A DNA stretch of 57,433 nucleotides, taken from IMG/VR virus record IMGVR_UViG_3300007512_000043, positions 1-57,433 of that record; one strand, written 5' to 3'. The notes under the pieces were generated by a model. It saw only the letters and a program-made list of their open reading frames with translations, made no database searches and was not told the DNA's origin. Within the stretch, counting starts at the first letter, position 1. Each line of letters starts with the position of its first letter. The position numbers and the translations under genes are program-made. Shown in pieces: positions 34,901 to 57,433 of this stretch. The stretch is from a virus.

Positions 34901-37900
34901 ATCGATTCATCCTTGGCCAGCAAGGCGCAGGAAATCCAGCAGGCAGTCCCGATTGAAAAATATGAGGCAGGGGAGGCCGAGTATGCGTACACGCGGTACT
35001 CGACTGCTGAGCATTTAACTCAGGAGCAGTTGGTCACTAGGGAGATAGAGCCTGAGCACCCAGATGACGCAGGGGTAATTAACAAAAAACTTAAGGCTGA
35101 GAGTGAGGCTGTAAGGCTTTCCAGAGAGAAGGCGTTCAAGGAGATGGCTAGGCTTACCCCTGTCGACAGAAGGAAGATGCTCAAACACACAGAGGCTGTG
35201 TCCTTTAAGTGGCAAGACAAGCCTCAGGAGAGGATTCCAATGCCGGAGCCAAGCCAGAAGGTGCACAGGCAAAAGGAGGATGATGCAGGGCCAAGGCGCA
35301 TATATGAAATAAACAACGCTGGTCGGCTTGTTAATATTCCCAAGAGTAATTTATTCAACAACGCTTGGCGAAAGAGGAACGGACTTAAACTTGTTGAGTT
35401 CAGTGACGGGAAGTGGTGGCACGTTATTGGGGGGCCGGTGGTTCACACCAAGATGAGTGGGCCTAGGGTAACAACTGCTGCTTCTGAGGAGGTTCTCGAC
35501 AGGATGGCTGCAACAGCCCCGGTTACCCACGGGGAGAGGATGAGGCAGACTAGACTGAATCAGCCGCCGCCAAGCAGTGTAGTTGACCCGGGCAGAGATT
35601 TCGAAGGGAACACATTTACCCTGACTGAAGAGGGAGGGAAGAAGGTTCAGTCTATCCTTAACACATATACCAATACCCGTGAGTTCCTTGAGGAGATGGC
35701 AGACCGAATTGCTGACTACGGCAAGGGAGAGTTGGCCCATCAGCTTACTAAATTTGCAGAGGCTGGTCGCCCGGGACAACCATCAATTCATTTTAAGGAC
35801 CGTATCAAAAATCCTGCTGGCCGAGATGCCCTGAAGAGCTGGGCCAAGCGCGTGTCACCGGAAAAGTGGCAAGCAGTTGCTCATTACGCAGAGGAAATAC
35901 TTCTTACGGCTAACACTGGTGGCAGGGCGAATAGGTTCAGGGTAAGGGTAGAACAGGCAGAGAGAATCGGCCCGGTGATCCCCACTGATCTTCCTTGGGC
36001 GCAAGGGAAGAAACAGCTTAAGGACTTAATCAGCCGAAAGGACAACGGCCTAACCGATGAGGCGAGGGAGAAGGCGCTTAGGATAATAAACGAGATTGAT
36101 TCAGAGTTGCTGGACAATCTTTCCCTTAGGATAGGGGCAAGGTTGAACTCCAACGGGGACACAGAAGTGGATATCGTTGGTGAGTTCAACACTCTTGGCA
36201 ATCTCATTACACTTGCTGGCGATGTCAGTGTCGATCCAGATGTTCTGCTTGAGGAGATAGCCCACTTCACAGCTAGGGTCCTGCCTGAAAAACTTAGGAA
36301 CGAGGCCCGGGGGCTGCACAAGGCTGCGCTTGATGATGCGTTTAAGAAGAGCCAAGCCACCCCCGTAATGGCGAAGCATCCTCGTACTGAGGAAAAAATA
36401 ATTCAAGTCCGCCGTTGGGCGGCCAAGCACGTCTTGGTTCGCAAGGTGCTTGAGAAAATCAGAAAGGGTGAGGACGGTCAGTTAACCAGTGACGAGTACA
36501 GGGCTGTCCTACCTAGAATCGGTGACCTTGTCTCAGGCACAGGGAAAATGTCTGATACCGTGTCCGTTGATGCCGAGATGCTGGAAGATATTGTGAGGGA
36601 AACATATCATCTTGCAAACCCGGATGAGTTTTATGCCAACGCAATGGTCACAAGGGTTGGTGACTCCACATTTGATCGTGCCCGTGGGTTCCTCAAGAAC
36701 ATTCTTCGCGCAATAACTAGAGTGTTCTCCGGCAAGAGTGAAAGCGAAAAGGTTGATGACTTTGTAAGGAGGGCGCTTAAAGCACTAGCCAATCCTGATA
36801 AGCGCAACAAGGATATGCGAGGCATGCTTATGCGCCGCAACATTCTTGCGAAGGGAATGCGTGTGTTAAGCAGGGCTGATCGACTAAGGGATGCTGTGCT
36901 TGCGCTGAACGAAAGGGCGCAGGCAGCCGATGATCTCGGCAATACAGAAACGGCTGCTCGCCGCAGGGATGAGGTGAAGAGGCTTGTGTCTCAGGCGTCA
37001 GCAATCACGAATATATTTGATAAGGTTATAAGGAGGATAGCCCCTGACTTGTCTCCCAATAGCAAGGTTTGGGGGATGGTCAACATGCGTGACATAGATT
37101 TTGTTAACGATCTCCTTGAGGTGTTTCCGTCAGAGAGCGAGTACAGAAAGGTACTTGAAAAGTTTGCCTCGGATGGAAGGCATGAGCTTGGTCAAGCCAC
37201 TGCACTGTATGCAATGCACATGATACAGGAGATGGAGAGAGTTGCTAGGACACTGACCGAGAGGGCGGAAAAGAGATCAAAGGATGTAAGGGGCAAGAAC
37301 TTCCTGAAGTCGCTGACAGAATTTGCAAAGAAAGTAGGAGACAGCGCAGTAACCGGCAAAACCAAGGCTGATCTTACATCTGAAATAAAAGATGTCATCA
37401 GTATAGCAGCTACCGAGTTTGCCGAAACCGGGGACATTCGCGGACTGCTTGGTGGTGAGTTTGTGAGGGTTGCAAGTGAGGATGCAATACAGGCAGCACA
37501 GGACAAGGCCGGGATGATAGCCGCGAATATGGAGCAGATAGCCACCATCCTCACTGAAACAGCAGATGGTAGGGAGCTCCTCAACAGGGACGATATCAGT
37601 GAGGAAGCAACTGAGGAGGAGAGCCTGTCAATAACGGGAGAGCAGCTTGAGACTATCGCGCATGACATTTATCAGATTGTGGATTCTGTTCTGGCGGCAA
37701 ATCAAACCCCGATAGATATGATGCCTGACGATGAGCAGATTGCTTGGAGGGTTGCTGCTGGATTGTTTGCAGGTAATAAGAAAGCTAGGGAACACGCCAC
37801 GGTTTCGTCCTTCGGTGAGGAGGATGCGGAAATTTACAAGCGGGCTGTAGAAGAAGTTGCAAAGCTAAGGGATGGCTTGGAAAGCGGAAAGCTCAACAGT

Positions 37901-40900
37901 CAGAGCGCCTTTGACTCCTTTTCTGGGGATATGGACCTCCTGTTAGAGGAGGGGAAGCTTGCCTATGTTGCGCGTTATGCAATCAGATCGCCAATGCGAA
38001 GGATCAAGGACGCGCTCGACCACCGTAAGGCGGCTGATCTAGCAAGGGCCGTGATGAATGACCCTGAAATGCTGGACTACCGGCGGCAGGTTGGGATAGA
38101 TGCAAAGGTTGACGATGTTCCTGACCTGCTTGGTGATACTTTCTATGAGCAGTTTGTTAATGGTGAGGTAATCATTCCAGTCCCCCCAACTGATCTTGTT
38201 GAGGAGTTCGATCCAGATGGCAGGCTAAAGAGAGGGAAGGAACCCAATGTGAGGAAGTTCAGGTTCTTTACCGGCAAGGAAGAGGGAGCCAAAGAGAACC
38301 TGCTGGCTGCGTATGAGGCCGCAATAGACATTCAGAAGTGGCTGGATCAAGAGCTCAAGAAGACAACTCCTGTGATTGATGCTGAAACAGGGCTGCCTAT
38401 GCTTGACGAAAAGGGGGACGTTATTATGGACGACGCCCCGTTAAGTCCGTACTGGAATTTTTACTGGAACACTCTTCAGCAGTTACAGGCAGGGTTCCTT
38501 CATGACGCAGTGTGGAACGCGCCGGACGACATGAACCAGAGGGGTATGTTCAGGAATACATACTTCGGTGTTCTTCGCCACCTAGTTTCAGGCACGCCAA
38601 CAAGGGCAATGAAGATTGCATCCCGGTACGTTGATAAGCATGAGATGTACTACGTTCTGTTTGACTCATGGAAGGCAAACTTCAAGGCACCTTGGGCAAA
38701 CAAGTTACTGGATGCGGCAAAGTCTAGGCCGGGCAGGTTTGCGCTGGACGTTGGTGGCATCGGGCTAAGATGGGAAGAGCTAAAAGCTTGGGCTCAGGTA
38801 AGCAAGGATGCTCAGGTTGCCAAGGGTGTTGCAAACTGGGAGAGAACAATAGGCAGGCACCTCCGCGAAAGCTGGCAGGAAGGAGGTCAGGAGATTGGCG
38901 TAGGCGAGTTGCTTCCCAATGGTGAAATTGTAACCAAGGAAGATATGGCCCTCATTGACTTTGAGTTCAAGATGGCCAATGAGGCTTACGAGATTAACGA
39001 GCTTATAACTGACATCGACGAGAGCGTTCAGCCCCTGAGGGTAAACGACCAGACGGTCAAGACACTCAGAAGAAGGGCGCTAAAGCGAGGCAAGAAGATG
39101 CTTCCAAGGAGGTTCAGCACAAACGGGAGGAGCCTTGTCAGCAGGTGGAACAGGTTGAAGGATGATCTCAAGGGGGCTGATCTTTTTGATGCGGTATTCA
39201 GGAACGGCGAGGAGGGGTTCGAGGCAATGGTTTCATTCCTTAATGACAGGGACCCTGAGTGGATAACGGCACCAACCGAAGACGAGGAGGGCCGATTGAA
39301 ACCAAGGCCCGGCTCACCGAACGAGCATCTTTACAGCATTGTCGCTCAAGAGATACAGCAAAACGGCCCCGAGATGGAGCACACAACGAATGCTGTAATA
39401 AAGCTGCTGGCAGAGAAGGGCAGCCGAGGTGCCGATGATGTGAAAGTGGCCATCATGAACGAGCTTGAAGGGTCGCTTACAAATCTGAACAGGAGGATCA
39501 ACCCACCAGAGAAGGATGCGATGCTGGTTCAGCTTAACCACTCAAGCGGCCACTCCCCAATGACTGACGCGAGACAGGATAAGCTTGGCCCAAGCTTCTT
39601 CTACACGCACGGGTTTAACCACGAGGCTGAGGTCCAAAGCTTTACCAGTTCACTCCAGCTACCTGTTGCGAACGGGGTTATTAATGCACTGCGTTCAGCA
39701 TCTAGGGACTTGAATGATTTTATAAACAAGGGTGGCATCAAGGAGGCAATTGACGACGCTGTTGAAAAGCTGTACGGAAACAAAAAGAACCCGAACAAGT
39801 ACAGGTACAGCAACAAGGTCCTAAAGGAAGTAAGGAAGGAGCTTGGCATTGATACCGGGAGCAAGAACAACCCAGAGGTAGACATCTTCAACACAATCGT
39901 AGCTATTGACTCATTCACAAGGGACTATGAAGATGTTTACGGGGCAGGTTACAAGGACTTTACTGTTGACTTGATGCCTAAGCTTGGTCGCCGGGTTTGG
40001 TCTTCAATTGTTGGAGGCATCCTTGGGAACACAATGACTGCGATGCGTAACGTCTCGGAGACAGCCATTGGTGCAACCATAAACGTGCAGAGCCTCACTG
40101 GCGGAACGGGATTGCAGGCTGCGATGGCTGTCATTACTCGCGGGTATCTTGTTCACGCGCTAAAGCTTGGAGGCTCCCTAGCCAAGAGCTTGCTTAAGTT
40201 GTCGGTCTATCCGGTTGGAGGATTCAAGCAGGACAAATTTGTTCCGTTACTGCCCCTGCGTAGCGCAGTCACTAGCGGCTGGTGGCACCAGAAATACAGG
40301 AAGGGCCTCAAGCAGAAGTTAATGGGGATTAAGCCTGACATTACGATGCTAATTCAAGGGCTCTTTGATCCTATGATTGTTGAGCTTGCTCAGGTAATGC
40401 CAAGGAGAATTAATGAGCATAAGATTTTAGAAAGGCAGGGGCTTGGGATGCCAATCACCCCAACAGAAACGATGCTGAACTTCGGCCAGCTTCGTGAGAT
40501 GGGTGGGAGGATAATGGACGAGGTGTCTGCGGAGGAAACCAGCTCCTCCAATCCAGTTGCGGCCCTATGGAACCGGGGACTGTACAACTTGGTTGGACAT
40601 TGGGAGTCCTACATTGCGCTCTGGTTTAGACCGACGCTTCCAAGGATTGGGGACTTAGCGGCCAATAACATAATGGCTTCAATGGGTCATTATGTTGGGC
40701 ACAACCTAGAACGAAAGGCTCGGCTGGCCTTTGGCAGCAGGATGAAGAACAAGGTGGCCCTTGATGAGGACATAACCCCACAGGAGTTGGTGGGTAACTT
40801 CCTAGGTTTACTTGAGGCTAACAGGGTTACTTGGAATAATGTTGAGGAGTTCCTGTCTCAGGCTGGTGTTACAAACTTTAAGGATCAGGTAAGGAAGTTC

Positions 40901-42205
40901 TGGAGGGAACTCCAGACTGCCCCGAATGATGAGGCAAGGAGGAATGTAAAACTATTCAAACCAAAACAACTGGACCGGATGGCAGCGATCATTGTCATGA
41001 CAAACAACCATCCGACTCCAGCCAACCGCCCGTTATGGATGAAGACCAATGTGATGAACTCTGTCCTGTTCGCTCTCACTGGCTGGTCGTTCAACCAGTT
41101 GCAGAACTGGGCGAAGTCAATGCCGGGCACGGGGTATAAGACGCGAGGAGACAAGTCAGTGATGCAGGGGTTTGTCCAAAGGGCTCAAGCCTTTTTAGTA
41201 ATGGCCGCAGCTTTGGGCATAGCCATACCCGACAACTGGCTGCTTGAATACCTAGCCAGAATGGCAGACAGGCAGCTTTATGGGCGAAGAAGGGTTGCCC
41301 GTTTGCCAAATGAAATGCAGGGAACAAAGAACCAGATGTGGGCAACTGCCGGGCTGGCATTTCAGTCCGTGCCCCTCTTCGGAGGCACACTTGCCGCACT
41401 TGCACACGATCTTCCCGGCAGGCCGCAGCATCTTCCTGCCAATCTTCTGATGAGTCAGGTTGGGAATGCCATCCGGTGGGGAATGGAGATGAAGGAGGCT
41501 GGTTTATATCTCCCCGATACTAAGAACAGGGAGGTGGTTTTAGAATGGATGATTAATCAGTCAGTAAACGCAGCCAACCGGGCTCTGCCGATGACAAGGA
41601 TCATCACCTCCAGAATAAGTCCTCACCAGAAAGCCCTGCTGAAAACAATCAATGCAATAAGGGCCGTCAAGGCAAACTATGGTGACCCGAAGGCTACAAA
41701 GAGTACCGCAGGCTGGTCGGGGCAATACCAATACAGGCAGTCCAGCTTATGGAGCCCGTACAGGGAGCTCTGGGCGGCGGCTGTCGAGAGCGGTGACCTG
41801 AACGAGGCAAGCAGAATATTTGACGAGGCAATCCCGGTTTTCATTGCGGCGAAGAAGTACGCAACAGGGGACAAGGTTTGGGATTCGCCGGGTGCTTGGG
41901 ACAAAGCCAAGAGAAGTATGGAGCAGAGCTTAAAAACTATGAACCCGGTAAGGCGTTCGCTTAGGTCAGTTCCAACAAGGGATATGTTCTGGAGGAACTT
42001 AACTCACGTCAACAAAATTGATCGTAACTATATTGAGACGAGCATTCGAAACTGGGAAAATGCGTATGCGGAGTTCGGGTGGACAGGGCTATTCGCCAAT
42101 GAGCCTGTTAGGGAAAAGCCTCCAACGGTTCCACCCCCCTCGAAAAGAATCCCCAGCTACAGGCCTAAAAGTCAGGGTCCAAGGTCGAGGGTTCCGGGCG
42201 GCTAG
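28961..42205 (+). CDS. Giant (4,414-residue) polyvalent-type ejected virion protein
   Basis: This single uninterrupted frame covers 13.2 kb. In order: a charged N-terminus (1-150); an Ala/Gly-rich hydrophobic region (about 316-417) that could insert in a membrane, including an EEGADQFIEQ phrase common in large phage ejection proteins; an acidic linker; a Pro-Glu linker (about 696-730); a compact domain with SLNGRFIKLVDVNGIKVPFY (about 934-977); long helical sections; a segment LLEEIAHF (about 2427) that resembles a metallopeptidase helix but lacks the first His; and a C-terminal hydrophobic and Trp-rich region with PLWMKTNVMNSVLFALTGW (about 4024). No polymerase motifs found. The style matches multi-domain polyvalent proteins injected with phage DNA. 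The 3' end overlaps the convergent integrase gene. Confidence 0.65.
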   Translation: MPQGTYPSLNYGGQRRRQSGPRPRVSGAYMPFTSYEDFDAYSKKLSEAQQAYKDYEDYLKSIEDERERERQRRRKIIEDPEYAKLYSERYRVGQENLKDTPSRVAAHLEQGIKSTGESLYKQYTEAYEASAYLLGADYERLKELREERKAAEQMMEEQKAERLKGIRGGSGSEFAYEAGQAAAQEAPFLAASAGTGRIVSGTVKKGLEKSAAKKAVAVEAALKEAPVSAAGRASAMEAQRVSAAERIAKLTEKTNRQASVATMGAIHGDRKFSSSSAANYDIMYPQVYSALEAQNRDGEFSPKELARMADEQTREIAIAPSLAAGAATTALVTTFGATGVESLFANTASRITARNAISTLGKGFGFEFTEEGADQFIEQVIQKHTLREDRPWEDIISETWHAATIGGVVGVKYSGIGLVARAPKEVDLRWRERQGRKALERIQSRDFFISYIKEQNPELSDEVVREKARELADGVADIKERARLRSSGATEEEIEDQSAINQLISEDQLDQLESEGVDVSDERTKNVELKVFYDRGVTAAQTNENAEDIIEEIERDYGAVAATKFAEGFNQTKATDELSEPEVGEEQAEPETVPAEEPTGPDIEAPVDVDVEEEKPEVPLEGEEKLEALAKEYWEAGEAESFKSARPIIKEFDELAEELGYDHMDRIVEEDSVLAEIFYKHAPEHQKPALEEAEKGAAPAPEPAPEPVAEPEPAPEPAPEPEPTEAEAETAEAPGTERTDLTGVKEGDIINLFDPRGRPVPREVTAINADSTTVTTKEPGNPDDPGSSISDEGIYSTISTKSEDFEIGTIEGSPPVSSLTDEELQHALGRQQEIIDSKKKHGQPYEWVARNYNAIKYEQRRRAEEPETEIGIESQLSESPSDEAFFGPPDLRQPGQPTPPAEEKPLPVNMIPYTESKYNSKTQTFDKVKGESEYVSLNGRFIKLVDVNGIKVPFYLSTGRAGKENVPEGKWYPIFGVSTATGWLNKGTQSQILDYYGSPALRDAAKKLDDEVGDIRAADVPRLASGMTKRKGKKGWSDPSTLEAIEFINNALGVTALKRDEALKKDDDGVKGIDKNIRTVLSAIEGESSPTESKGQVVFNALAAAGDLINPELVGRGTLEGEALSLGSMLEGRDETEPPPGFSYDRNFNLVPLKPGEKREPVRIEVKRENLKIPPNNLLIIGSHIKRTTGRGRGGVEYHKSIDGFLPSGHKAEEVLLPFRFAGENRPMAFIRYNKEGGKIQVGYFVRSAGPSPFRFKPTHTLKNSERYEYRTPNGTLKGFKIPTSLTTSKAIVNEKNWERLPSKYSGKLERAEAAATPDSHLIRRFIDHISSPVLKRQLNLMWNNGLDRWKNPQGSIDEGVIPPMLSLEGIAATILVANQFKKGTGSKRGKYARTLISTGKMEELANSFESAIKTLRNSDSYTKTVLNDKGTPKKTVNALLRRHDLLLRATKGLSPGQTQELISKWEEEQVKSTAEFDVKQFLNAMEMVAAINKTHKARELTLNDIIFVDKGQADEYFTGAVFTPDQRGQSRAYQVAIGKAPPRVKKIEDVTAEVVSDREVKTTTVDEDGALKDEGYARAYGIEITDSNRIPLSVLVKGLKELMPDIDFSTQELPDGTGRGTEKTEVERIKFDVDPTQKKKTGTSFMDVTGGKGGAKTTTARAKRAIPGRVIKRTQLNLTPLNPEALTEEKLLTVRAAIKFISKKASRIKDFQPSARWTAANKKKLKLERLKAKKDFNDKLKKFWNASEDELADLAKKEETQFFKDIARWLLQPNSKKGTTWAQFIKNNSTTDAVGGIKRGPDLTKAEKAYLSRGLTIKETKLLQEEGGSEADWAGMLTAGKIQSYASDQLAGVLKEGEEKPEATQGFLPLTTPDAGPPDIVTEEIHLVKDQLKDRVKKFRLDGRQFYIIDTTGKEDLGFWYTFNAKEATKEEFGGYGTGEDWVQLPMSEVKTELQAKNRILDQVNKSNDNLSVLGMAALIDSSLASKAQEIQQAVPIEKYEAGEAEYAYTRYSTAEHLTQEQLVTREIEPEHPDDAGVINKKLKAESEAVRLSREKAFKEMARLTPVDRRKMLKHTEAVSFKWQDKPQERIPMPEPSQKVHRQKEDDAGPRRIYEINNAGRLVNIPKSNLFNNAWRKRNGLKLVEFSDGKWWHVIGGPVVHTKMSGPRVTTAASEEVLDRMAATAPVTHGERMRQTRLNQPPPSSVVDPGRDFEGNTFTLTEEGGKKVQSILNTYTNTREFLEEMADRIADYGKGELAHQLTKFAEAGRPGQPSIHFKDRIKNPAGRDALKSWAKRVSPEKWQAVAHYAEEILLTANTGGRANRFRVRVEQAERIGPVIPTDLPWAQGKKQLKDLISRKDNGLTDEAREKALRIINEIDSELLDNLSLRIGARLNSNGDTEVDIVGEFNTLGNLITLAGDVSVDPDVLLEEIAHFTARVLPEKLRNEARGLHKAALDDAFKKSQATPVMAKHPRTEEKIIQVRRWAAKHVLVRKVLEKIRKGEDGQLTSDEYRAVLPRIGDLVSGTGKMSDTVSVDAEMLEDIVRETYHLANPDEFYANAMVTRVGDSTFDRARGFLKNILRAITRVFSGKSESEKVDDFVRRALKALANPDKRNKDMRGMLMRRNILAKGMRVLSRADRLRDAVLALNERAQAADDLGNTETAARRRDEVKRLVSQASAITNIFDKVIRRIAPDLSPNSKVWGMVNMRDIDFVNDLLEVFPSESEYRKVLEKFASDGRHELGQATALYAMHMIQEMERVARTLTERAEKRSKDVRGKNFLKSLTEFAKKVGDSAVTGKTKADLTSEIKDVISIAATEFAETGDIRGLLGGEFVRVASEDAIQAAQDKAGMIAANMEQIATILTETADGRELLNRDDISEEATEEESLSITGEQLETIAHDIYQIVDSVLAANQTPIDMMPDDEQIAWRVAAGLFAGNKKAREHATVSSFGEEDAEIYKRAVEEVAKLRDGLESGKLNSQSAFDSFSGDMDLLLEEGKLAYVARYAIRSPMRRIKDALDHRKAADLARAVMNDPEMLDYRRQVGIDAKVDDVPDLLGDTFYEQFVNGEVIIPVPPTDLVEEFDPDGRLKRGKEPNVRKFRFFTGKEEGAKENLLAAYEAAIDIQKWLDQELKKTTPVIDAETGLPMLDEKGDVIMDDAPLSPYWNFYWNTLQQLQAGFLHDAVWNAPDDMNQRGMFRNTYFGVLRHLVSGTPTRAMKIASRYVDKHEMYYVLFDSWKANFKAPWANKLLDAAKSRPGRFALDVGGIGLRWEELKAWAQVSKDAQVAKGVANWERTIGRHLRESWQEGGQEIGVGELLPNGEIVTKEDMALIDFEFKMANEAYEINELITDIDESVQPLRVNDQTVKTLRRRALKRGKKMLPRRFSTNGRSLVSRWNRLKDDLKGADLFDAVFRNGEEGFEAMVSFLNDRDPEWITAPTEDEEGRLKPRPGSPNEHLYSIVAQEIQQNGPEMEHTTNAVIKLLAEKGSRGADDVKVAIMNELEGSLTNLNRRINPPEKDAMLVQLNHSSGHSPMTDARQDKLGPSFFYTHGFNHEAEVQSFTSSLQLPVANGVINALRSASRDLNDFINKGGIKEAIDDAVEKLYGNKKNPNKYRYSNKVLKEVRKELGIDTGSKNNPEVDIFNTIVAIDSFTRDYEDVYGAGYKDFTVDLMPKLGRRVWSSIVGGILGNTMTAMRNVSETAIGATINVQSLTGGTGLQAAMAVITRGYLVHALKLGGSLAKSLLKLSVYPVGGFKQDKFVPLLPLRSAVTSGWWHQKYRKGLKQKLMGIKPDITMLIQGLFDPMIVELAQVMPRRINEHKILERQGLGMPITPTETMLNFGQLREMGGRIMDEVSAEETSSSNPVAALWNRGLYNLVGHWESYIALWFRPTLPRIGDLAANNIMASMGHYVGHNLERKARLAFGSRMKNKVALDEDITPQELVGNFLGLLEANRVTWNNVEEFLSQAGVTNFKDQVRKFWRELQTAPNDEARRNVKLFKPKQLDRMAAIIVMTNNHPTPANRPLWMKTNVMNSVLFALTGWSFNQLQNWAKSMPGTGYKTRGDKSVMQGFVQRAQAFLVMAAALGIAIPDNWLLEYLARMADRQLYGRRRVARLPNEMQGTKNQMWATAGLAFQSVPLFGGTLAALAHDLPGRPQHLPANLLMSQVGNAIRWGMEMKEAGLYLPDTKNREVVLEWMINQSVNAANRALPMTRIITSRISPHQKALLKTINAIRAVKANYGDPKATKSTAGWSGQYQYRQSSLWSPYRELWAAAVESGDLNEASRIFDEAIPVFIAAKKYATGDKVWDSPGAWDKAKRSMEQSLKTMNPVRRSLRSVPTRDMFWRNLTHVNKIDRNYIETSIRNWENAYAEFGWTGLFANEPVREKPPTVPPPSKRIPSYRPKSQGPRSRVPGG

Positions 42206-43094
42206 GCATTACAGACTTGGCTTGAATCAGCTTGCCTACTTCATCCACATCCGTGTCTAGGTAGCGTTGCAGCATACTGGTGGATGACCACCCTATTATC
42301 TCGACAATTGTTGTCACCTTTATCCCCGCCTTTATCATGTTGGTTGCTGCTCCGTGGCGAAGGCAGTGGAATGTCATGTGCGGCGGTAGCCCGGCTGCTT
42401 TAACTATCCGCTTGAACTCCTTGCTTAAGGAGTTGGAGGCATACCTTTGTGCCCCAAGGGGAAAGTAGAACTCTTGGTCGTCCTCAATGGGCAGGCCCTT
42501 GATAGCCTCCACCAGATCATGATGTAGCGGCAACTCGATCTCCCTCTCGCTCTGCTTTCTTGGCATGAACTTGAATGTCATCCTGTTCCAGTCAACGCAG
42601 TGAGCCCCAAACTTGGCACAGTCTTCTATCCTCATTCCGTAATGCCATCCCAACAGTATCATCGGAACCCAGTAATCACAGCCGTGGTCAGCATTGGCTG
42701 CCCCGATCAACGGGGCAATCTCCTCAGGCTCAAACCCCCTTACATGTTTCCCTTCTTTCGGGAACTTGCCGACTAGGAAGCAGGGGTTCCTGTCGAAATA
42801 ACCCATTACCAGTCCCCAGCTATAGAAGGACTTCAGCCTTTGGATATACACATTGATTGATCCCCCGGTTCGAACACGCTTTCCCTTAACAGGTGCCCTC
42901 AGGGTTGAAGCCCACCTGTTAACAGTATCGGGCTCAAGCGGGTCCAGCTTCCTGTCCAAACAAAACATGGCAAACTTTTCCAGTGTGCCTTGGAGCCCGA
43001 TAATCGTGTTGTCTTTACCTGTGACCTTCTTGAAGGCAAGAAATTCGTGAATCAATTGTGGCAGCGTTCTGCCTAGCTTTTTTTTCTTCTTCAT
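42165..43094 (-). CDS. int: Tyrosine recombinase (integrase)
   Basis: This 309-residue recombinase has a SAM-like core-binding domain (about 8-105) followed by a catalytic domain. All catalytic residues are visible: R155 in YGMRIEDC, K180 in PRKQSE, H243 and R246 in FHCLRHG, W269 in IIGWSS and the nucleophile Y278 in LQRYLDT. It would integrate and excise the phage genome, making the phage temperate. The 3' end overlaps the giant gene by 41 bases in opposite orientation. The start follows the HTH gene stop by six bases, so it is at the end of the minus-strand recombination operon. No attP core was identified. Confidence 0.92.
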   Translation of the reverse strand: MKKKKKLGRTLPQLIHEFLAFKKVTGKDNTIIGLQGTLEKFAMFCLDRKLDPLEPDTVNRWASTLRAPVKGKRVRTGGSINVYIQRLKSFYSWGLVMGYFDRNPCFLVGKFPKEGKHVRGFEPEEIAPLIGAANADHGCDYWVPMILLGWHYGMRIEDCAKFGAHCVDWNRMTFKFMPRKQSEREIELPLHHDLVEAIKGLPIEDDQEFYFPLGAQRYASNSLSKEFKRIVKAAGLPPHMTFHCLRHGAATNMIKAGIKVTTIVEIIGWSSTSMLQRYLDTDVDEVGKLIQAKSVMPSRPEPSTLDPDF

Positions 43095-47928: not shown

Positions 47929-47955
47929 AAAATAGGGAGGCCCGAAGGCCTCCCT
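47927..47955 (-). terminator. Intrinsic terminator with TTCG loop
   Basis: On the minus strand AGGGAGGCC, loop TTCG, GGCCTCCCT, then a T-run (47932-47927). Nine perfect pairs. It ends the early operon that begins near 57.2 kb, or its last segment, after a 100-base untranslated tail. Confidence 0.9.
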
Positions 47956-48053
47956 ACCCAAGCAATGTGAGCAACACAACAAACAGAGGGAAATACTACG
48001 AAACCCCTGTCGCAGGCACACATTATCCAACCAGTAGGCACCTAGGCAAGCCC

Positions 48054-48431
48054 TTATTTGCTATTCTTTTTACTGAAGAACTTGTTCCTCAGTACGGCCA
48101 TCTTGACCGAATGTTCAGCGGTTCCTGTCCTAACCGCATTCGTCCTTAACCATTCCTCAGTCAGCCCCAGCTTCTTGAGTGATGCTGCGACATCCACCTT
48201 CTTGGCTCCTGTTGGCCTAATGCTGAAGACCAGCCTTGGGTCATCCCCGTTTGAGGCTGGCTCAACCTTGGGCCCCTTCTTCACAGGGGTCCTGTTCTTC
48301 TTCCTGAGCACAGGCTCAGGTTGCTGCTCTTGCAGTGAGGCAGACACAAGCCTTGCCTCTTTCATCGTCCCGACCAAGCCAATCAAATCGGCTAGGTCAT
48401 TGCCTCTAGCATGTATAATAACGGTATACAT
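48054..48431 (-). CDS. Hypothetical protein downstream of the repeat array
   Basis: This 125-residue basic protein starts behind GAAAGGAA 12 bases upstream. The N-terminal part is a short strand-helix (YTVIIHARGNDLADLIGLVG). The middle is Lys/Arg/Pro-rich (LRKKNRTPVKKGPK). The C-terminal part (about 80-120) is a helical segment that looks like a small winged or SAP-like fold (DVAASLKKLGLTEEWLRTNA). The repeat array is its 5' neighbour and it is the last gene before the terminator. The charge suggests nucleic acid binding; binding to the array is a hypothesis only. Confidence 0.6.
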   Translation of the reverse strand: MYTVIIHARGNDLADLIGLVGTMKEARLVSASLQEQQPEPVLRKKNRTPVKKGPKVEPASNGDDPRLVFSIRPTGAKKVDVAASLKKLGLTEEWLRTNAVRTGTAEHSVKMAVLRNKFFSKKNSK

Positions 48432-48489
48432 AAATATATTATTCCTTTCTGTATAATTGTTGTGATTAAACTTAACGCTCTGCTGGATT

Positions 48490-49367
48490 GGTGCTCTCTC
48501 GTATTTTGACTCGTTCTGATTATATGGTACTCACATTATTGATGACTCGCTCACTCAGTATGGTTCTCTTATTTTTAGTGACTCGCTCTTGCAGTATGGT
48601 TCTCTCTTTCGAAGTGACTCGCTCTATCATATTGGTTCCACTCATGGACAGTGGCTCGTTCGTCGGATCTGGTTCTCACTTTTTTAATGACTCGTTCGGA
48701 ATGACTGGCTCTATCGGGTAATATGACTCGTTCGGGGTGCGGGGTTCTCTCAAATAGTATGACTCGTTCGGTTCTAATGGTTCTCTCCTATTCGTTGACT
48801 CGCTCCGTATCTCTGGTTCTCTCGATGTATGTGACTCGTTCGTTCATAGTGGCACACTGCTGCTGCATAACTCGTTCGGGGATGATGGTTCTGCTTATGA
48901 TCTTTGACTCGTTCTGCTCCAATTGATTCTCTCAGGTCACATGACTCGTTCTATTCATTTGGTTCTCTCCTTGGTACTTGACTCGTTCATTACCAGTGGT
49001 GCTGTTCTGTAGTAGTGACTCGTTCCAGTCTGATGGCTCTCTCGAATATGGTGACTCGTTCAACTTTCTTGGTTCTCTCAAGTTAAATGCCTCGTTCAGT
49101 AGGGGTGGTTCTCTCTTATACAATGACTCGTTCTCAGTCTTTGGTTCTCTCAGCCAAGATGACTCGTTCGCGTATACTGGTTCTCTCAGTAGGCATGACT
49201 CGTTCGACCAAGATGGTTCCCTCAACAACTTTGACTCGTTCTAGTTCTCTGGTTCTCTCGGAATGACTGACTCGTTCTGGACTAATGGTTCTCTCGAAAA
49301 CGATGACTCGCTTCTGCCTTCTGGTTCTCTCAAGACCTATGACTCGCTCGGCAATCAAGGTTCCCTC
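48490..49367. repeat. Two-box repeat array: 24 units of 36-37 bp, about eight-base variable spacers
   Basis: On the plus strand each unit is TGACTCGTTC, eight variable bases, TGGTTCTCTC, eight variable bases. Without the leading T, A boxes start at 48508, 48544, 48580, 48616, 48653, then on to 49341 (24 copies: 15 exact GACTCGTTC, 5 GACTCGCTC, 4 with one other change). B boxes lie 18-19 bases after each A box (24 copies, 12 exact GGTTCTCTC), plus one degenerate B at 48490-48500. Nineteen unit steps are 36 bp and five are 37 bp (ending at 48653, 48906, 48943, 48980 and 49017) when the step count includes all shifts in the series. Spacers share no sequence except a terminal T. The two boxes fit one 18-bp consensus, TGRYTCKYTC. 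No gene is credible here. Confidence 0.9.
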
Positions 49368-50113
49368 TATTGGCCGGGCTTATTGTATTCCGCTATTATT
49401 TTTTCAGCATCCCAGCCTAGCTTTAGCTTGTCACTAACGTAGTCTGTTGGAATGCCGAATGCGTCAGCGAAGTCTTTCTGCGATATGTAGATAGTCTTCG
49501 TCGAGTGTCTGACTACGGGCTCCTTGTTGTCGTCGCCTGTCGGAATGTTGGGAACATATGTGTAACCCTGCTCCACCACCAGCCTATCAACCTCCACATA
49601 GTTTGGCGGGACATCGAACCCAAAGGATTGTTCAAGGGTCCAGCCCTTGTTCTTCCTCGCTATTATCGTTTGGTACTTTGCGAACAGCGGGAACGGGTAG
49701 GCCCCGTCCTCAATCTGTCGCATAAGTTCCCTAACTGAACCCCCTTCCAGCACCTCGCCTCCGTTAGGAAGCCTCAGCCTCAGGTTCTCTTCAACCACCG
49801 GAGTGACATGATCGAGACACTTGTCAGGGGTAATGTCGTTGCCGGGTATCAGATCGAACAGGCTTACAACCTCATGCTTATCAATAGCAAAGAACTCCCG
49901 CTTGTCGCTGACCCTCTTGCTTGCCAGTGCCGAGTGTATCTTAGACTCAATGAAGTTGGCATCATCAACCTCCTTTGCGTAGATACATTCGAAGGGGGAA
50001 GGTACGTTCGTGTCAAACAACTGCTTCATCCTCCTCTCCAAGTTGCCGGTTTGCCCTATCTTCACAACGCACGGCATTGATGCGTTCGTAACTGCGTATA
50101 TTATACCGTTCAT
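49367..50113 (-). CDS. GIY-YIG domain protein (T5orf172/MUG113-like)
   Basis: This 248-residue protein begins MNGIIYAVTN, then VVKIGQTGNLERRMKQL with the catalytic Arg, and has the Glu in FIESKIHSAL, all of the GIY-YIG nuclease core (1-90). Two copies of a short DNA-binding-type motif follow: IARKNKGWTLEQSFGF (about 165) and KLKLGWDAEKIIAEYN (C-terminus), like the NUMOD helices in homing endonucleases. Its stop codon overlaps the last bases of the repeat array. The start is behind GAGGAG. It may cut DNA or act as a repeat-binding protein; the link to the array is by position only. Confidence 0.75.
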   Translation of the reverse strand: MNGIIYAVTNASMPCVVKIGQTGNLERRMKQLFDTNVPSPFECIYAKEVDDANFIESKIHSALASKRVSDKREFFAIDKHEVVSLFDLIPGNDITPDKCLDHVTPVVEENLRLRLPNGGEVLEGGSVRELMRQIEDGAYPFPLFAKYQTIIARKNKGWTLEQSFGFDVPPNYVEVDRLVVEQGYTYVPNIPTGDDNKEPVVRHSTKTIYISQKDFADAFGIPTDYVSDKLKLGWDAEKIIAEYNKPGQ

Positions 50114-50122
50114 TTTATCTCC

Positions 50123-50200
50123 TCAGTCGTCTGTCAGTACCAAGTAATAGAAATACAAGGTCATTACCAATGATGCGAATGCCAGTATCATGAGAATCAT
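50123..50200 (-). CDS. 25-residue membrane peptide
   Basis: Short frame MILMILAFASLVMTLYFYYL then VLTDD. It starts inside the previous stop (ATGA overlap with the gene ending at 50197) and ends ten bases before the GIY-YIG start, leaving room for its ribosome binding site. The whole peptide is one membrane helix with an acidic tail. The tight coupling supports it as a real gene. Function unknown. Confidence 0.5.
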   Translation of the reverse strand: MILMILAFASLVMTLYFYYLVLTDD

Positions 50201-50991
50201 GCCGCCTTTATATGGTGCACATGGCCCATATGCGCTATGGGATAAGGCAACGGCGGGTCTGTCTTGTAGTGCTCACGGTATGCCGTCTCATGCCAGTGCG
50301 CCAAGAACAGCTTGACCGCATATCGCTTGGCTCTGGCGTGAATGTGGCCCGGCGGCAGCTTGCCAACCGAGTAGTGCTTGTATGCCTCGGTGTTCTTTCC
50401 GACCCGCTTGGCACCCTCATCTGCCTGAGACTTGTACATGAGTACGCTGTTGTTTGCAGTCTCAAGCACCTTGCGTTGTTCATAGTACTGACCATAGATG
50501 TCCTTGTCCCTTGACTTAACCTTCACGAATGACTCACCTATCTTCCAGCACAGTGTCTTTAGGCTGGCGTTCCAAGGGCGCTTCTGTCCCTTGCCCCACT
50601 TGCACGTTGGGTCCTGACCTGCGTACCTCCAGATGTGTCCGACAGTAGGGGCCTTGGTGATGTCGATATGAGCAAGAAGGCCAGCCGCAATCACAGGGCC
50701 GATCCCGCATATACCCATAGACCACTGCCCCACTGGGTCAGCCTTCGCATACCTGTTCAGCGACCTCTTGATGTTGTGCTCAAGGTCTTCGTTGACTTCA
50801 CCAACCCACTCAAGCAATGAGCTTGGCTCGTTTGTGCCTGCCAAGCTTCTCACCTGTGCTGCTGCCCTTATTCTGCTATCTTGTATCTGATAGTATGTGT
50901 CCACTAGGAACCTAGCTTCATCTGATGAGAGCCTTGAGCTCGCATCAAGCAGGTCCTTGTCCAGTTTTATTCTCTCTCTTCCTTCGCTCAT
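50197..50991 (-). CDS. Stand-alone IS110 Transposase_20-like protein
   Basis: This 264-residue protein contains GICGIGPVIAAGLLAHI (about 93-110), a helix-hairpin-helix segment, then GHIWRYAGQDP and KRPWNASLKTLCWKI. This is the order seen in the C-terminal Transposase_20 domain of IS110-family transposases. The N-terminal RuvC-like DEDD domain of those enzymes is absent; instead there is a helical 85-residue N-terminus. No insertion sequence ends are seen, and it is locked in an operon by ATGA overlaps on both sides. It is likely a domesticated DNA-binding protein. Confidence 0.6.
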   Translation of the reverse strand: MSEGRERIKLDKDLLDASSRLSSDEARFLVDTYYQIQDSRIRAAAQVRSLAGTNEPSSLLEWVGEVNEDLEHNIKRSLNRYAKADPVGQWSMGICGIGPVIAAGLLAHIDITKAPTVGHIWRYAGQDPTCKWGKGQKRPWNASLKTLCWKIGESFVKVKSRDKDIYGQYYEQRKVLETANNSVLMYKSQADEGAKRVGKNTEAYKHYSVGKLPPGHIHARAKRYAVKLFLAHWHETAYREHYKTDPPLPYPIAHMGHVHHIKAA

Positions 50992-53495: not shown

Positions 53496-55028
53496 TTATT
53501 CAACGATTACCGGAATGTAACCGTAAGTTCTTTGTGGTAGTACAATGGAATCACAGGCATTCACGCCAACGAAGATGGTTGGCACGCCTGACTCGGTCAT
53601 GCTGTCATAACAGAACCCCATATCTGTCACGAATATAGCCCAGTCGTAGTCGTGCTTCTTATCCCTCAACCAGTCTATCGCTGGCTGCATGTCCGTGCCT
53701 CCGCGCCCCAGCCACTCACGGGGTACCGTAAGAGGCAGGTCGTTGTAGTTGTATTCACGAATGCCACGCTCATGTATTGTGGCATCGCACTGCACCATTG
53801 TGATCTCTGCCTTCGGCCATTCCTCCAGAACCTTGCTGATCTGGACGATAGCCTCGTCGCATTCACGGTGACCCATACTCCCGCTGGTGTCTGTGATTAC
53901 CGCACCCTTGGTCTTACCCTTGGTGCGATTGGACGGGAAGATAACATCGCCCATCGTGCGCCTGCGGTGTGGCCGCTTGTGATTGCGCCCACCCAAGCAT
54001 GACTTGTGGATGTACTCACGGAGCTTTGACCAGTTATTCGCAGCCTTCTTGGCAATGGAATTTTCTATGTAATCAATCCCATACCCTGCGCCCCTGCCTT
54101 GCTGCTTCATGAGCACCACTGCCTGAGTTGCTGTCTCTTCGTACTCGGCCTCGGCATGATCCATCCCCTCCTCTTCAATGACGGGACTGTCATCAACCTC
54201 GCCAACCACAGTGCTGTCTCCGGTTATCTCTTCAAACTTTTCAGTAAGAGACTTGCCGCTGCTCGCTGTACCCCCGCTGGATGTGGCATCTCCACTGCCA
54301 CCAGCATTGCTGTCGCCGTCAGTATCGCTGTCACCATCACTGCCGTCGCCGTCGCCGTCGCCGTCGCCCCCGTCGTCAGGCTTCTTGTCGCCGTCGCCCC
54401 CGCTGGTGGTGCTGGACTCTTCATCGTCAGGCTCGCACCCTTCGCCATTCTCTCCGCCATCTCCGCCTTCACCATCCTCGCACGGCTCGGTGATGCCTCC
54501 GTGTGGAGGCTCAGGAAGATCGGCAATGTCCTTCTCAAGCTCACGGTAATACCATTCAGCCGACTTTAGGTGAGGGAACTTTGCCCAATCACCTTCTCTT
54601 GGCATGAGTATCTTGACCTTGTTGATCAGCTCGTCCCAAACGTCCAGCTTGATGATGTAATCCCTGAGCAGTGAGTTGATAGCCAAGTCACCGGCCACAT
54701 TGTAGCCCTTGTGATTTCGGTCACCCCTTCTGACGTGGTGCCCCAGCAGCAGGTGCATTGCCTCATGCAACACCACCCACTTGACGGCATCCGTGCTCAG
54801 CTTATCCACAAACTTGGGATTATACTTGAGCACTCGTCCATTGGTACACATGGTCGGGACGCCGTGATCCATAACAACCTTCCACTTGGCAATCCACGGG
54901 ACGCCAATTGGATGGAAGTCGAAGATGTAATCATGACCCAGATCAACCTTCAACTTCGCTCTCTTCATTATGTCATCCAACAAGCTGTCGGCTGACTTCA
55001 TCGCTTCTTTTAATTTAGTATTGCTCAT
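53496..55028 (-). CDS. Metallopeptidase-VWA protein (DUF2201 type)
   Basis: This 510-residue protein is read from the ATG at 55028 behind GAAAGGAACC. The N-terminal domain has VLHEAMHLLLGHHVRRGD, an HExxH zinc site at 88-92 in a metallopeptidase-type helix. The middle (about 180-260) is an acidic Asp/Gly/Ser low-complexity linker. The C-terminal VWA-like domain has DTSGS (380-384), a Thr in GGTD (about 446) and VTDMG (about 469), a full metal site. This two-domain layout is the one found next to MoxR ATPases, one of which is encoded two genes upstream. It would be a substrate adaptor, protease or chaperone partner. Confidence 0.8.
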   Translation of the reverse strand: MSNTKLKEAMKSADSLLDDIMKRAKLKVDLGHDYIFDFHPIGVPWIAKWKVVMDHGVPTMCTNGRVLKYNPKFVDKLSTDAVKWVVLHEAMHLLLGHHVRRGDRNHKGYNVAGDLAINSLLRDYIIKLDVWDELINKVKILMPREGDWAKFPHLKSAEWYYRELEKDIADLPEPPHGGITEPCEDGEGGDGGENGEGCEPDDEESSTTSGGDGDKKPDDGGDGDGDGDGSDGDSDTDGDSNAGGSGDATSSGGTASSGKSLTEKFEEITGDSTVVGEVDDSPVIEEEGMDHAEAEYEETATQAVVLMKQQGRGAGYGIDYIENSIAKKAANNWSKLREYIHKSCLGGRNHKRPHRRRTMGDVIFPSNRTKGKTKGAVITDTSGSMGHRECDEAIVQISKVLEEWPKAEITMVQCDATIHERGIREYNYNDLPLTVPREWLGRGGTDMQPAIDWLRDKKHDYDWAIFVTDMGFCYDSMTESGVPTIFVGVNACDSIVLPQRTYGYIPVIVE

Positions 55029-55062
55029 ACTGTATGGTTCCTTTCTGATTACTGGCAAGTAA

Positions 55063-56094
55063 TTAGCTCACCAAGTTAATACTTCTTATGTCATCAAGCA
55101 TGCTCCTTGCGGTGGCTGTTGCCTCCTTCCGCATATTGCTGTCCTTCTTGACTCCCTCGGCTGTGAACTTCTCAAACACCTGCGCCATCTTCTCCGATGC
55201 CTTCTCAATGTCGGGGCACCCAGAGACGTTGACCTCCTTCATCACGCTCACCAGTTGCTTGATGTTGTTGATCGAGTTGCCATTGTGTCTAGCCCTCAGC
55301 CCCTTGCGCTTGTCCTCAAGCTTCTTGACCTTGGCCTCCGCTTTTTCAAGCTTGTCCTTGTCCCCTTTCGGGGCCGCCTTCAAGTCGGCCTTGGCTTTAA
55401 TTAGCAGGACATCAATCTGTTCCTGCTCCTCCTTTGCCTTGCCGTATGGTTCAAGGGTGTCGATGCAATTGGTTAACACGTCCTCCATTCTGGTGACTGA
55501 CTCATTGCGAGCTGCTGTCACCTTTCGCTGGAGTCTCTGATTCAACTCATGCTCCATATCCTTGACCACGGCAGCGGTATGGTTAAGGCGAATGTCATCA
55601 CCGCCCTTGACCACGTCACGCTCAATGGTGAACTTGAAGTTATCCCTGAGCTCTTCACGACTAGGGAAGTCAGCCCACTCAAACTCACCTCGGAGTCTGG
55701 ACTTGGCATCCTCTCGCATACCGTCATAGTCCTCGTCCACTATTTTGTCAGCGACCTCAGTTGACTTGAGCTGCAACTCCTTGAGCTGTGTCTCAATAGA
55801 CGGCCAGAACTTGAGCCTGACCAGTCGCCATCCGTTGTCATCATATGCACAGCTTCTGTAATTCAGATAGCTGCGTGCCTCACCAACCAGCTTGGCGTAG
55901 CGTGCGAGGTTATCACCCCGTAGCTTCACAAGCGTAGTCCTTACGGAATCGGTGTCGATTCCCTTCGACTTGGCCGTGTCAACGGCAAGCCGTTCGCTCT
56001 TCTTGCTTTTGCCCGGCTGCTTGAAGCTGAGCTTGACGAGAATCACATCCTCTTGGATTCTCTTTAGTACTTTTTGTTGTGCAGTTAGCAACAT
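55063..56094 (-). CDS. Coiled-coil protein between MoxR and VWA genes (DUF3150-like)
   Basis: This 343-residue, strongly helical protein has a long charged coiled coil at about 220-265 (KAKADLKAAPKGDKDKLEKA and following) and a second at about 305-335. It lies between the MoxR ATPase and VWA genes and has the same GAAAGGAACCAT leader. It matches by layout the third member that often accompanies phage MoxR-VWA pairs. Likely a structural bridge in the complex; no catalytic motif. Confidence 0.65.
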   Translation of the reverse strand: MLLTAQQKVLKRIQEDVILVKLSFKQPGKSKKSERLAVDTAKSKGIDTDSVRTTLVKLRGDNLARYAKLVGEARSYLNYRSCAYDDNGWRLVRLKFWPSIETQLKELQLKSTEVADKIVDEDYDGMREDAKSRLRGEFEWADFPSREELRDNFKFTIERDVVKGGDDIRLNHTAAVVKDMEHELNQRLQRKVTAARNESVTRMEDVLTNCIDTLEPYGKAKEEQEQIDVLLIKAKADLKAAPKGDKDKLEKAEAKVKKLEDKRKGLRARHNGNSINNIKQLVSVMKEVNVSGCPDIEKASEKMAQVFEKFTAEGVKKDSNMRKEATATARSMLDDIRSINLVS

Positions 56095-56118
56095 ATTATG
56101 GTTCCTTTCTTGTTTGTA

Positions 56119-57246
56119 TTACAGGTTCTTCGCCTGTAAATCCTTGTAGGCTTGGTGCGAGGCCACCGTCATCCTGTCTTTCGCCATTCGAAAGAAGTTC
56201 GCTTGGTATTCCTCGGGCCACCGACCTGCGTAATCGCAGAAAGCCCTTGTCTTCGCACGGTCTTCAATGAACATGCCCTTCTCATCCTGAGGGGCAGCAT
56301 CTTGTACCATTGAGATACTGGTTGCGTAGTACAACCCCGGCTCCTTCGGGAGCTTGCAACCCTTCGGGTCTTTGAAGATTTCCCCGGGCTGTGGACACTC
56401 ACTCATTCGTGTGCGGAACTCCTTCATTGAGTTGCCCACGTTGCGCCCAACTGTTCCGAAGATACATGCTTCAACCACCTTTGGATTGGTGCTCCACTTG
56501 GTGCCAATCTCATAGCATGACTCGATGAGTTTGGATGCCCAAGTAAATGTCCTTGAGTTGCACCTTGCGTGCTCGGCATAGGACACTGGCTCCCCGAACA
56601 CCTCGTCCTTCTGGTACTTGGCAAAAGCCTGAGCCCAAGCAGGGACGTTGTTATTCTGAGCCCATTGAACATACCCATCAACGGCTTCCTCACTCTGATG
56701 CGCCACATACAGATGCGTCAGCCTTGTGGACAACGCTTCCGTAAACGGTGTGGTTCCGATGTCACTCTCACCGTTACCGGCGGCAATGACCCTGACACAA
56801 TCGTAGAGGCGTGCACCATTACACATCCTGTCGAGGATGAGTTGCAGTGCCACGTTCAACACCTCTTGCATCGAACGATCCAGCTCATCAAGAAACATCA
56901 GACACTTGTCAGTCCATTCCCCTTTGAGGTTCTTCCAACGCGGTTTGATCAGCTTGCCCTTATCGTCAAACTTCTCAAACGGTATCACATTGGATGACTG
57001 GAGCCACTCAACGCACTTGTTCACCCTGTCTGCGACAGGCAGTCCAGCCAGATCGGGCGGCTCTTTGTCCGAACAACGAACATCGAACAACGCCCAGCCC
57101 AGCATCTCGGCAATCTGCCTGACGATACTGGATTTTGCACAACCCGGTGGACCCCACAACATGACGGGCTGGTTGACATTAACACAGACCATCAGTGCTG
57201 ACTTGATTGTGGCTATCGGATAGGTAACAGCTTCACAGCTATTCAT
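56119..57246 (-). CDS. MoxR-family AAA+ ATPase
   Basis: This 375-residue protein is read from the ATG at 57246 behind AAAGGAACC. Walker A GPPGCAKSS (about 32-40), Walker B CLMFLDELDR (about 105-114), sensor-1 VIAAGNGE, and an arginine finger region LSTRLTHL. The D-L-A-G-L-P phrase after Walker A is characteristic of MoxR-type ATPases. It would work with the coiled-coil and VWA/metallopeptidase proteins encoded next to it, remodelling or activating a target. It is the first gene of the early operon in the window. Confidence 0.85.
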   Translation of the reverse strand: MNSCEAVTYPIATIKSALMVCVNVNQPVMLWGPPGCAKSSIVRQIAEMLGWALFDVRCSDKEPPDLAGLPVADRVNKCVEWLQSSNVIPFEKFDDKGKLIKPRWKNLKGEWTDKCLMFLDELDRSMQEVLNVALQLILDRMCNGARLYDCVRVIAAGNGESDIGTTPFTEALSTRLTHLYVAHQSEEAVDGYVQWAQNNNVPAWAQAFAKYQKDEVFGEPVSYAEHARCNSRTFTWASKLIESCYEIGTKWSTNPKVVEACIFGTVGRNVGNSMKEFRTRMSECPQPGEIFKDPKGCKLPKEPGLYYATSISMVQDAAPQDEKGMFIEDRAKTRAFCDYAGRWPEEYQANFFRMAKDRMTVASHQAYKDLQAKNL

Positions 57247-57433
57247 TCTATTATGGTTCCTTTCTTTTTTTGTTATGGTTGTACCAGCCAATGGCTGGCA
57301 GGCTCGGTCACCTGACCGCTCCCCTCAAACATCAGAAGATGATGACAGGACTCATCAGCCTGTCAATATTATTTTTAATTTTTTTTTATTATTCTGATGG
57401 TTGAAGGGAACGGCCAGCCCGAAGGCTGACCGC
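57247..57433 (-). other. Leader region of the early operon with inverted repeats
   Basis: No gene is seen in these 187 bases. Reading leftward it holds: a hairpin CGGTCAGCC / TTCG / GGCTGGCCG (57432-57411, one G-T wobble), an A/T-rich stretch, a TTGACA box overlapping an inverted repeat, the palindrome-like CGGTCA-CC-TGACCG (57306-57319), a hairpin CCAGCC-AAT-GGCTGG (57284-57298) and the ribosome binding site of the ATPase gene. It is likely a regulated promoter and structured 5' leader. Confidence 0.5.
57343..57366 (-). promoter_or_regulatory. Candidate operator overlapping a -35 box
   Basis: TGACAGG (57343-57349), nine bases and CCTGTCA (57359-57365) form a perfect seven-base inverted repeat. 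The minus-strand TTGACA (57366-57361) overlaps its right arm. A matching -10 is not obvious (ATCATC at the expected distance), so the promoter is uncertain. Confidence 0.35.

What the first reader, a model, noticed from the sequence alone, without database searches (positions are those of the whole stretch)
48490..49367. Array of 48 short conserved boxes with about eight-base non-conserved spacers
Seen: 24 A boxes (T)GACTCGTTC and 24 B boxes (T)GGTTCTCTC alternate strictly. The A boxes run from 48508 to 49341, a distance of 833 bases, equal to 23 steps of 36 plus five single-base insertions. Box conservation is high (15 of 24 A and 12 of 24 B exact), while spacers are unrelated apart from a final T. 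Recent tandem duplication would keep spacers alike, so the boxes seem to be kept by selection or made by repeated copying of only the boxes. Both boxes fit TGRYTCKYTC, hence an 18-bp underlying period. Repeats are too short for CRISPR and the spacing is not helically phased. Options: a replication-origin iteron field, a titration array for a regulator, or an RNA with many protein sites (purine-rich on the transcribed strand). I know of no named element with this form.
Basis: seen in the sequence. Interest (0 to 1): 0.9.

Follow-up and report, generated by a model that had tools for sequence, protein, structure and literature searches.

The report
Phage guide-RNA array (TIGR-TasA)
The repeated boxes are a TIGR array, a string of about 25 two-part guide-RNA genes that a phage carries together with its RNA-guided DNA-binding protein TasA; this kind of system was first described in 2025, so this is a new member of a known family with some informative details about how its guides change.

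Summary
The array is real and far beyond chance. It is not an unnamed element: it is a TIGR (tandem interspaced guide RNA) array, described by Faure et al. 2025 (PMC12045711). With a truncated edge repeat at each end this makes 25 predicted 36-nt guide RNAs. The gene at 50197-50991(-) encodes the partner, a nuclease-less Tas protein (TasA): it matches solved TasR and TasH by sequence and by predicted fold. A scan of IMG/VR found 69 stretches with the same boxes; 54 also hold a tas homologue, usually directly upstream of the array. A GIY-YIG (T5orf172) gene lies between tas and array only here; the nearest relative lacks it. Relatives show non-polar, mosaic replacement of guides while tas stays conserved, and one guide unit kept across five otherwise different arrays. 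Searches for natural targets were negative. Most likely function: RNA-guided, non-cleaving DNA binding against other DNA (competing elements or host); target and effect are not shown. New member of a known kind.

The parts
48476..49379 (-). TIGR array: 25 loop repeats (GAGAGAACCA), 24 full edge repeats (GAACGAGTCA), a truncated edge at each end, 8-nt spacers; 25 predicted 36-nt tigRNA units
   Evidence: register from co-inheritance of spacers
50197..50991 (-). tasA: 264-aa solo Nop-domain Tas protein without a nuclease domain
   Evidence: phmmer to TasR 9mty 1.3e-15 and TasH 21kl 5.5e-14; AlphaFold model pLDDT 84, whose only Foldseek hits below 1e-3 are TasR/TasH, followed by IS110-family recombinases
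49376..49379 (-). 5' truncated edge repeat (box C half) at the start of the array
   Evidence: by comparison with about 60 relatives in which the truncated edge mostly sits at or just after the tas stop codon
48476..48480 (-). 3' truncated edge repeat GAGCG (box D half) at the end of the array
48832..48877 (-). conserved unit: edge GAACGAGTTA, spacer A TGCAGCAG, odd loop CAGTGTGCCA, spacer B CTATGAAC, next edge
   Evidence: kept in L052, L032, L041, L066 while nearly all other units differ
50123..50200 (-). 25-aa hydrophobic micropeptide ORF whose ATG overlaps the tas stop codon (ATGA); also in L052
   Evidence: read
49367..50113 (-). T5orf172 (GIY-YIG superfamily) gene inserted between tas and array; judged a passenger
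   Evidence: Pfam PF10544 1.9e-16; absent from the same place in L052 and not found in any of the other loci
48054..48431 (-). gene after the array, 125 aa, no known family; probably co-transcribed with it
   Evidence: also found after the arrays of L052 and L064 only
47930..47959 (-). strong intrinsic-terminator-like hairpin (13 pairs) after the 125-aa gene, the first minus-strand terminator-like site after the array

Best explanation
It is a TIGR-TasA system. The minus strand is transcribed through tas and the array; the RNA is cut within each edge repeat into 36-nt tigRNAs; a TasA dimer holds one tigRNA by its edge and loop repeats (box C/D-like ends); spacer A pairs with one DNA strand and spacer B with the other over about 16-18 bp. 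Because this Tas has no nuclease domain, the complex would bind and bend its target without cutting it, blocking transcription or replication of competing mobile elements or of host loci. Shown here: array anatomy, repeat register, homology and predicted fold of TasA, physical linkage, turnover of guides under conserved repeats and conserved tas. Inferred from the characterised family: processing, RNA binding, two-strand targeting. Not shown for this clade: the natural target and the effect on it. The confidence given is for the identification; for blocking of foreign or host DNA as the function I would say 0.6.
For: Alternating 10-nt repeats, 8-nt spacers and 36-nt units match the published definition. 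TasA matches TasR/TasH by sequence and fold. A scan for the box pair found 69 stretches of viral contigs; 65 hold a chain of boxes and 54 a tas homologue, mostly ending about 12 bp before the first loop repeat on the same strand. An independent search from the Tas side found 65 of 85 loci with an array within 700 bp downstream, and most of the rest with one upstream. Co-inheritance of neighbouring spacers is 348 of 521 across the loop repeat but 183 of 559 across the edge, so spacer-loop-spacer is the inherited unit. The last base of edge and loop repeats covaries among arrays, r = 0.86, as reported for TIGR. tas is 99% identical in protein between L016 and L022 while 20 of 24 guide units differ.
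Against: Spacers are 8 nt rather than 9, and repeats start with GA rather than the UG of TasR arrays (the paper allows divergence). No terminator directly follows the array. No RNA data exist. No target was found: matches in 1.43 Mb of TIGR-carrying phages, the own genome included, are at chance, self-matches reach at most 14 of 16-17, and three target scans of IMG/VR gave no convincing target.
Confidence: 0.93

Rival explanations
1. The T5orf172 GIY-YIG protein is the cutting partner of nuclease-less TasA, so this is a TIGR variant with a nuclease supplied in trans.
For: The gene sits between tas and array, same strand, spaced as in one operon.
Against: L052, the nearest relative, has the same tas, micropeptide, array and following gene but nothing in that place; phmmer found no relative of it in the other loci. 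T5orf172 proteins are common free-standing phage cargo (own knowledge).
Confidence: 0.06
2. An iteron-type replication origin, partition site or titration array bound by a phage DNA-binding protein.
For: Many regularly spaced short direct repeats in a phage, next to replication and recombination genes.
Against: Two different repeats alternate strictly; spacers are inherited as pairs across one repeat type more than the other; a Tas gene is nearly always adjacent; arrays range from about 10 to over 90 repeats; the fold of the partner is that of guide-RNA binding proteins.
Confidence: 0.02
3. A TIGR-TasA system used to tune the phage's own genes or to guide its own integration, rather than against other DNA.
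For: TasA probably only binds and bends DNA; the paper suggests help to integrases; the phage encodes an integrase; one unit is conserved across five phages.
Against: No spacer pair matches the own genome better than 14 of 16-17 bases; most guides are replaced between close relatives, unlike regulators of conserved own sites.
Confidence: 0.15

Closest known systems
TIGR-TasA systems (Faure et al. 2025, PMC12045711; e.g. Flavonifractor plautii FpTIGR)
   Same: Solo Nop-domain Tas, two alternating short repeats, short paired spacers, 36-nt units, truncated edges at both array ends, array next to tas, phage-borne.
   Different: 8-nt instead of mostly 9-nt spacers; 25 units against the usual 5-15; repeats begin with GA; array runs into a downstream gene rather than a terminator; a T5orf172 gene intervenes.
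TasR (9mty) and TasH (21kl, 9vzx and others), RNA-guided nucleases of the same family
   Same: Homologous Nop domain over most of the window protein.
   Different: N-terminal RuvC or HNH nuclease domain is missing here.
IS110-family bridge-RNA recombinases (IS621, 8wt6/8wt9) and box C/D snoRNP Nop proteins
   Same: Fold of the RNA-binding domain (Foldseek E 6e-3 and weaker to IS110-family entries; the Nop link is from the paper).
   Different: No DEDD catalytic domain, no single bridge RNA; sequence identity 14-16%.
CRISPR arrays
   Same: Repeat-spacer logic, variable guides.
   Different: Repeats of 10 rather than 25-36 nt, two alternating repeats, paired 8-nt spacers; turnover is not polar.

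Membership tests
TIGR-Tas | Two distinct alternating repeats of 8-12 nt | tested here: met
   10-nt edge and loop repeats, strict alternation over 49 repeats
TIGR-Tas | Short unrelated spacers (9 nt, some exceptions) and a unit of about 36 nt | tested here: met
   Spacers of 8 nt with a few of 9; period 36. One nucleotide shorter than usual
TIGR-Tas | Adjacent Tas protein with a Nop domain | tested here: met
   adjacency in relatives
TIGR-Tas | Array begins and ends with truncated edge repeats | tested here: met
TIGR-Tas | Box C and box D ends of edge and loop repeats covary between arrays | tested here: met
   r = 0.86 for the last base; that set contains some spurious chains, so the value is approximate
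TIGR-Tas | Rho-independent terminator directly after the array (typical, not defining) | tested here: not met
   the first minus-strand terminator-like site follows the next gene, 47959-47930
TIGR-Tas | Processing into 36-nt tigRNAs bound by Tas | not testable with these tools
   needs small-RNA sequencing
TIGR-Tas | Spacers A and B pair with opposite strands of a target | tested here: inconclusive
   no targets found; weak codon-like spacing of variable spacer positions fits joined A and B targets without a gap, z about 2
TasA subgroup | No nuclease domain in the Tas protein | tested here: met
   264 aa; best stretches begin at residue 142 of the TasR chain and 126 of the TasH chain; no Pfam domain
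CRISPR array | Single repeat of 25-36 nt with longer spacers | tested here: not met
IS110 bridge RNA | DEDD recombinase domain | tested here: not met

The most novel reading that the evidence does not exclude
In this clade TIGR guide arrays change not by adding units at one end, as CRISPR does, but by mosaic replacement all along the array plus point drift of spacers in place, and units can be exchanged between arrays of different repeat type; one such unit (TGCAGCAG/CTATGAAC with odd repeats) has become a core guide kept across five phages whose tas genes are near saturation at silent sites, and so should point to a conserved natural target.
Probability: 0.35. Interest if true: 0.65.

Novelty: new member of a known kind. 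Interest (0 to 1): 0.42.

Why it matters
The class is known, but the 2025 paper lists as open how TIGR arrays arise and change, what their natural targets are and what nuclease-less TasA does. The set of related arrays gathered here (65 stretches, more around the Tas hits), with many close pairs, makes the first question testable by comparison: turnover is internal and mosaic, and outpaces a tas gene under purifying selection. The conserved unit gives one concrete guide whose target should be conserved too. It also shows that a tool-less reader can pick out a guide-RNA array from raw sequence.

Tried and rejected
Coding repeat: single-base insertions break every frame, and relatives' spacers are unrelated. 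First register (B as edge) was wrong and was corrected by co-inheritance and array ends. Targets: scans of 658 kb and then 1.43 Mb of TIGR-carrying phages, several geometries with a shuffled control, gave chance levels; own-genome matches at most 14 of 16-17. IMG/VR scans for targets of two widely shared units gave 82 and 91 hits (I had estimated roughly 80-130 by chance, assuming about 45 billion bases), and the contigs hit were not hit by several different units. The scan for the conserved unit gave 89 hits: 36 are one gene, which I recognise as the terminase small subunit of P2-like prophages, all near-identical, and I put this down to database redundancy; one hit (L427) is from the same sample as L052, but no other unit of L052 matches that contig. 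Codon-tracking of spacer variants: suggestive spacing (z 2.0-2.6) but no excess of synonymous changes in a direct test. Isolated phages and plasmids: only distant Tas relatives in Salicola phage CGphi29 and Microcystis phage Mvi-JY20. Rfam and tRNA scans empty. The looser array finder makes spurious chains (reversed-sequence control), so counts of arrays are taken.

Full report
What is there. The window is an IMG/VR virus record of 57,433 bases. Between 48476 and 49379 lie 24 copies of TGACTCGTTC and 25 copies of TGGTTCTCTC, strictly alternating, nearly all 18 bases apart. The degenerate consensus occurs 36 times in the window against 2.08 expected by chance.

What it is. Neighbouring genes are all on the minus strand. 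The product of 50197-50991 has no Pfam domain but belongs to PHROG 4285, annotated as transposase, and matches two solved proteins, TasR (9mty, E 1.3e-15) and TasH (21kl, E 5.5e-14). Its AlphaFold model (pLDDT 84, pTM 0.81) finds in the PDB eleven TasR/TasH chains below E 1e-3, followed by IS110-family recombinases. TasR and TasH are the nucleases of TIGR systems, whose arrays are defined as two alternating 8-12-nt repeats with about 9-nt spacers, processed to 36-nt guide RNAs (PMC12045711). The window protein lacks the N-terminal nuclease part of both, which makes it a TasA.

Register. On the minus strand the repeats read GAACGAGTCA and GAGAGAACCA. Across relatives, two spacers on either side of GAGAGAACCA are inherited together in 348 of 521 comparisons, those on either side of GAACGAGTCA in 183 of 559. 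So GAGAGAACCA is the loop repeat and GAACGAGTCA the edge repeat. Arrays in relatives begin with a truncated edge (CCA or similar) mostly at or just after the tas stop codon and end with a truncated edge such as GAACG, as the paper describes. The window has 25 units.

Relatives. One box-pair pattern found 69 stretches of IMG/VR contigs, 65 of them with a recognisable chain of boxes; 54 also hold a tas homologue, mostly ending about 12 bp before the array on the same strand. Starting from Tas instead, 361 viral relatives were found, 80 kept, and ten in bacterial genomes and MAGs (Halomonas, Acidobacteria, Gammaproteobacteria and others). Of 85 of these loci examined, 65 have an array within 700 bp downstream of tas, three end too soon to tell, and most of the other 17 have one upstream. 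The last base of edge and loop repeats varies together between arrays (r 0.86), as expected if both bind the same site of a symmetric dimer.

The neighbours. In the nearest relative, L052 (TasA 83% identical), the order is tas, a 25-aa hydrophobic micropeptide ORF overlapping the tas stop, the array, and the 125-aa gene. The window has the same order with a T5orf172 gene inserted between micropeptide and array. It is therefore a passenger as far as comparison can tell.

How the guides change. Between L016 and L022, TasA is 98.9% identical and silent four-fold sites differ by 11%, yet 20 of 24 units have no counterpart; between L010 and L039, 15 of 21 units are identical. Replacements lie along the whole array, mixed with identical units and with units that differ by one to four bases, for which chance predicts about 0.02 matches per pair of arrays (my estimate). 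Thus turnover is mosaic and not confined to one end. Transitions exceed transversions among the drifted units (239 to 144).

A conserved unit. The unit at 48832-48877 (TGCAGCAG / CTATGAAC, loop CAGTGTGCCA, edge ending TTA) recurs in L052 unchanged in both spacers and the loop, and in L032, L041 and L066 with small changes in spacer A and the loop, although tas is near saturation at silent sites between window and L052 or L041 (0.57 and 0.63). The 29-base core occurs in IMG/VR only in these arrays. Its odd repeats resemble those common in another array type (L191, L192, L209), which suggests import of a unit by recombination (inference).

Targets. No spacer pair matches the own genome or 1.43 Mb of TIGR-carrying phages above chance, and three scans of IMG/VR with shared units gave no convincing target. 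The targets are thus probably in hosts or in other elements not sampled here, and the biological effect remains inferred: binding and blocking, since no nuclease is present.

Verdict. Whether this very contig was in that paper's table could not be checked. The interest lies in the comparison set and in the conserved unit, not in a new kind of element.

Noticed in passing
50123-50200 (-): A 25-aa hydrophobic micropeptide ORF starts in the tas stop codon (ATGA) and is conserved in L052; not possible in loci where the array starts directly at the tas stop.
   Followed up: partly
49367-50113 (-): T5orf172 (GIY-YIG superfamily) gene inserted exactly between tas micropeptide and array, with the truncated edge repeat among its last codons.
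   Followed up: yes
28961-42205 (+): A single ORF of 4,414 codons, nearly a quarter of the record.
   Followed up: no
42165-43094 (-): Integrase (PHROG 1), so the phage may be temperate; the protein at 50197 is filed in PHROG 4285 as 'transposase', which is probably a misannotation of Tas.
   Followed up: partly
53496-57291 (-): DUF2201 metallopeptidase/VWA-like protein and, two genes on, an ATPase of PHROG 1297, reminiscent of MoxR-VWA pairs.
   Followed up: no
L131 (Halomonas sp. NO4), L132 (Acidobacteriaceae bacterium KBS 96): tas genes in genomes that look like cultured isolates (probable prophages, inference); KBS 96 has a short array directly after tas, useful for laboratory work.
   Followed up: partly
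L191, L192, L209: Arrays with a second repeat type (edges GAACGAGTTA, loops like AAGTGTACCA or GATAGTAACA) that resemble the odd repeats of the conserved unit.
   Followed up: partly
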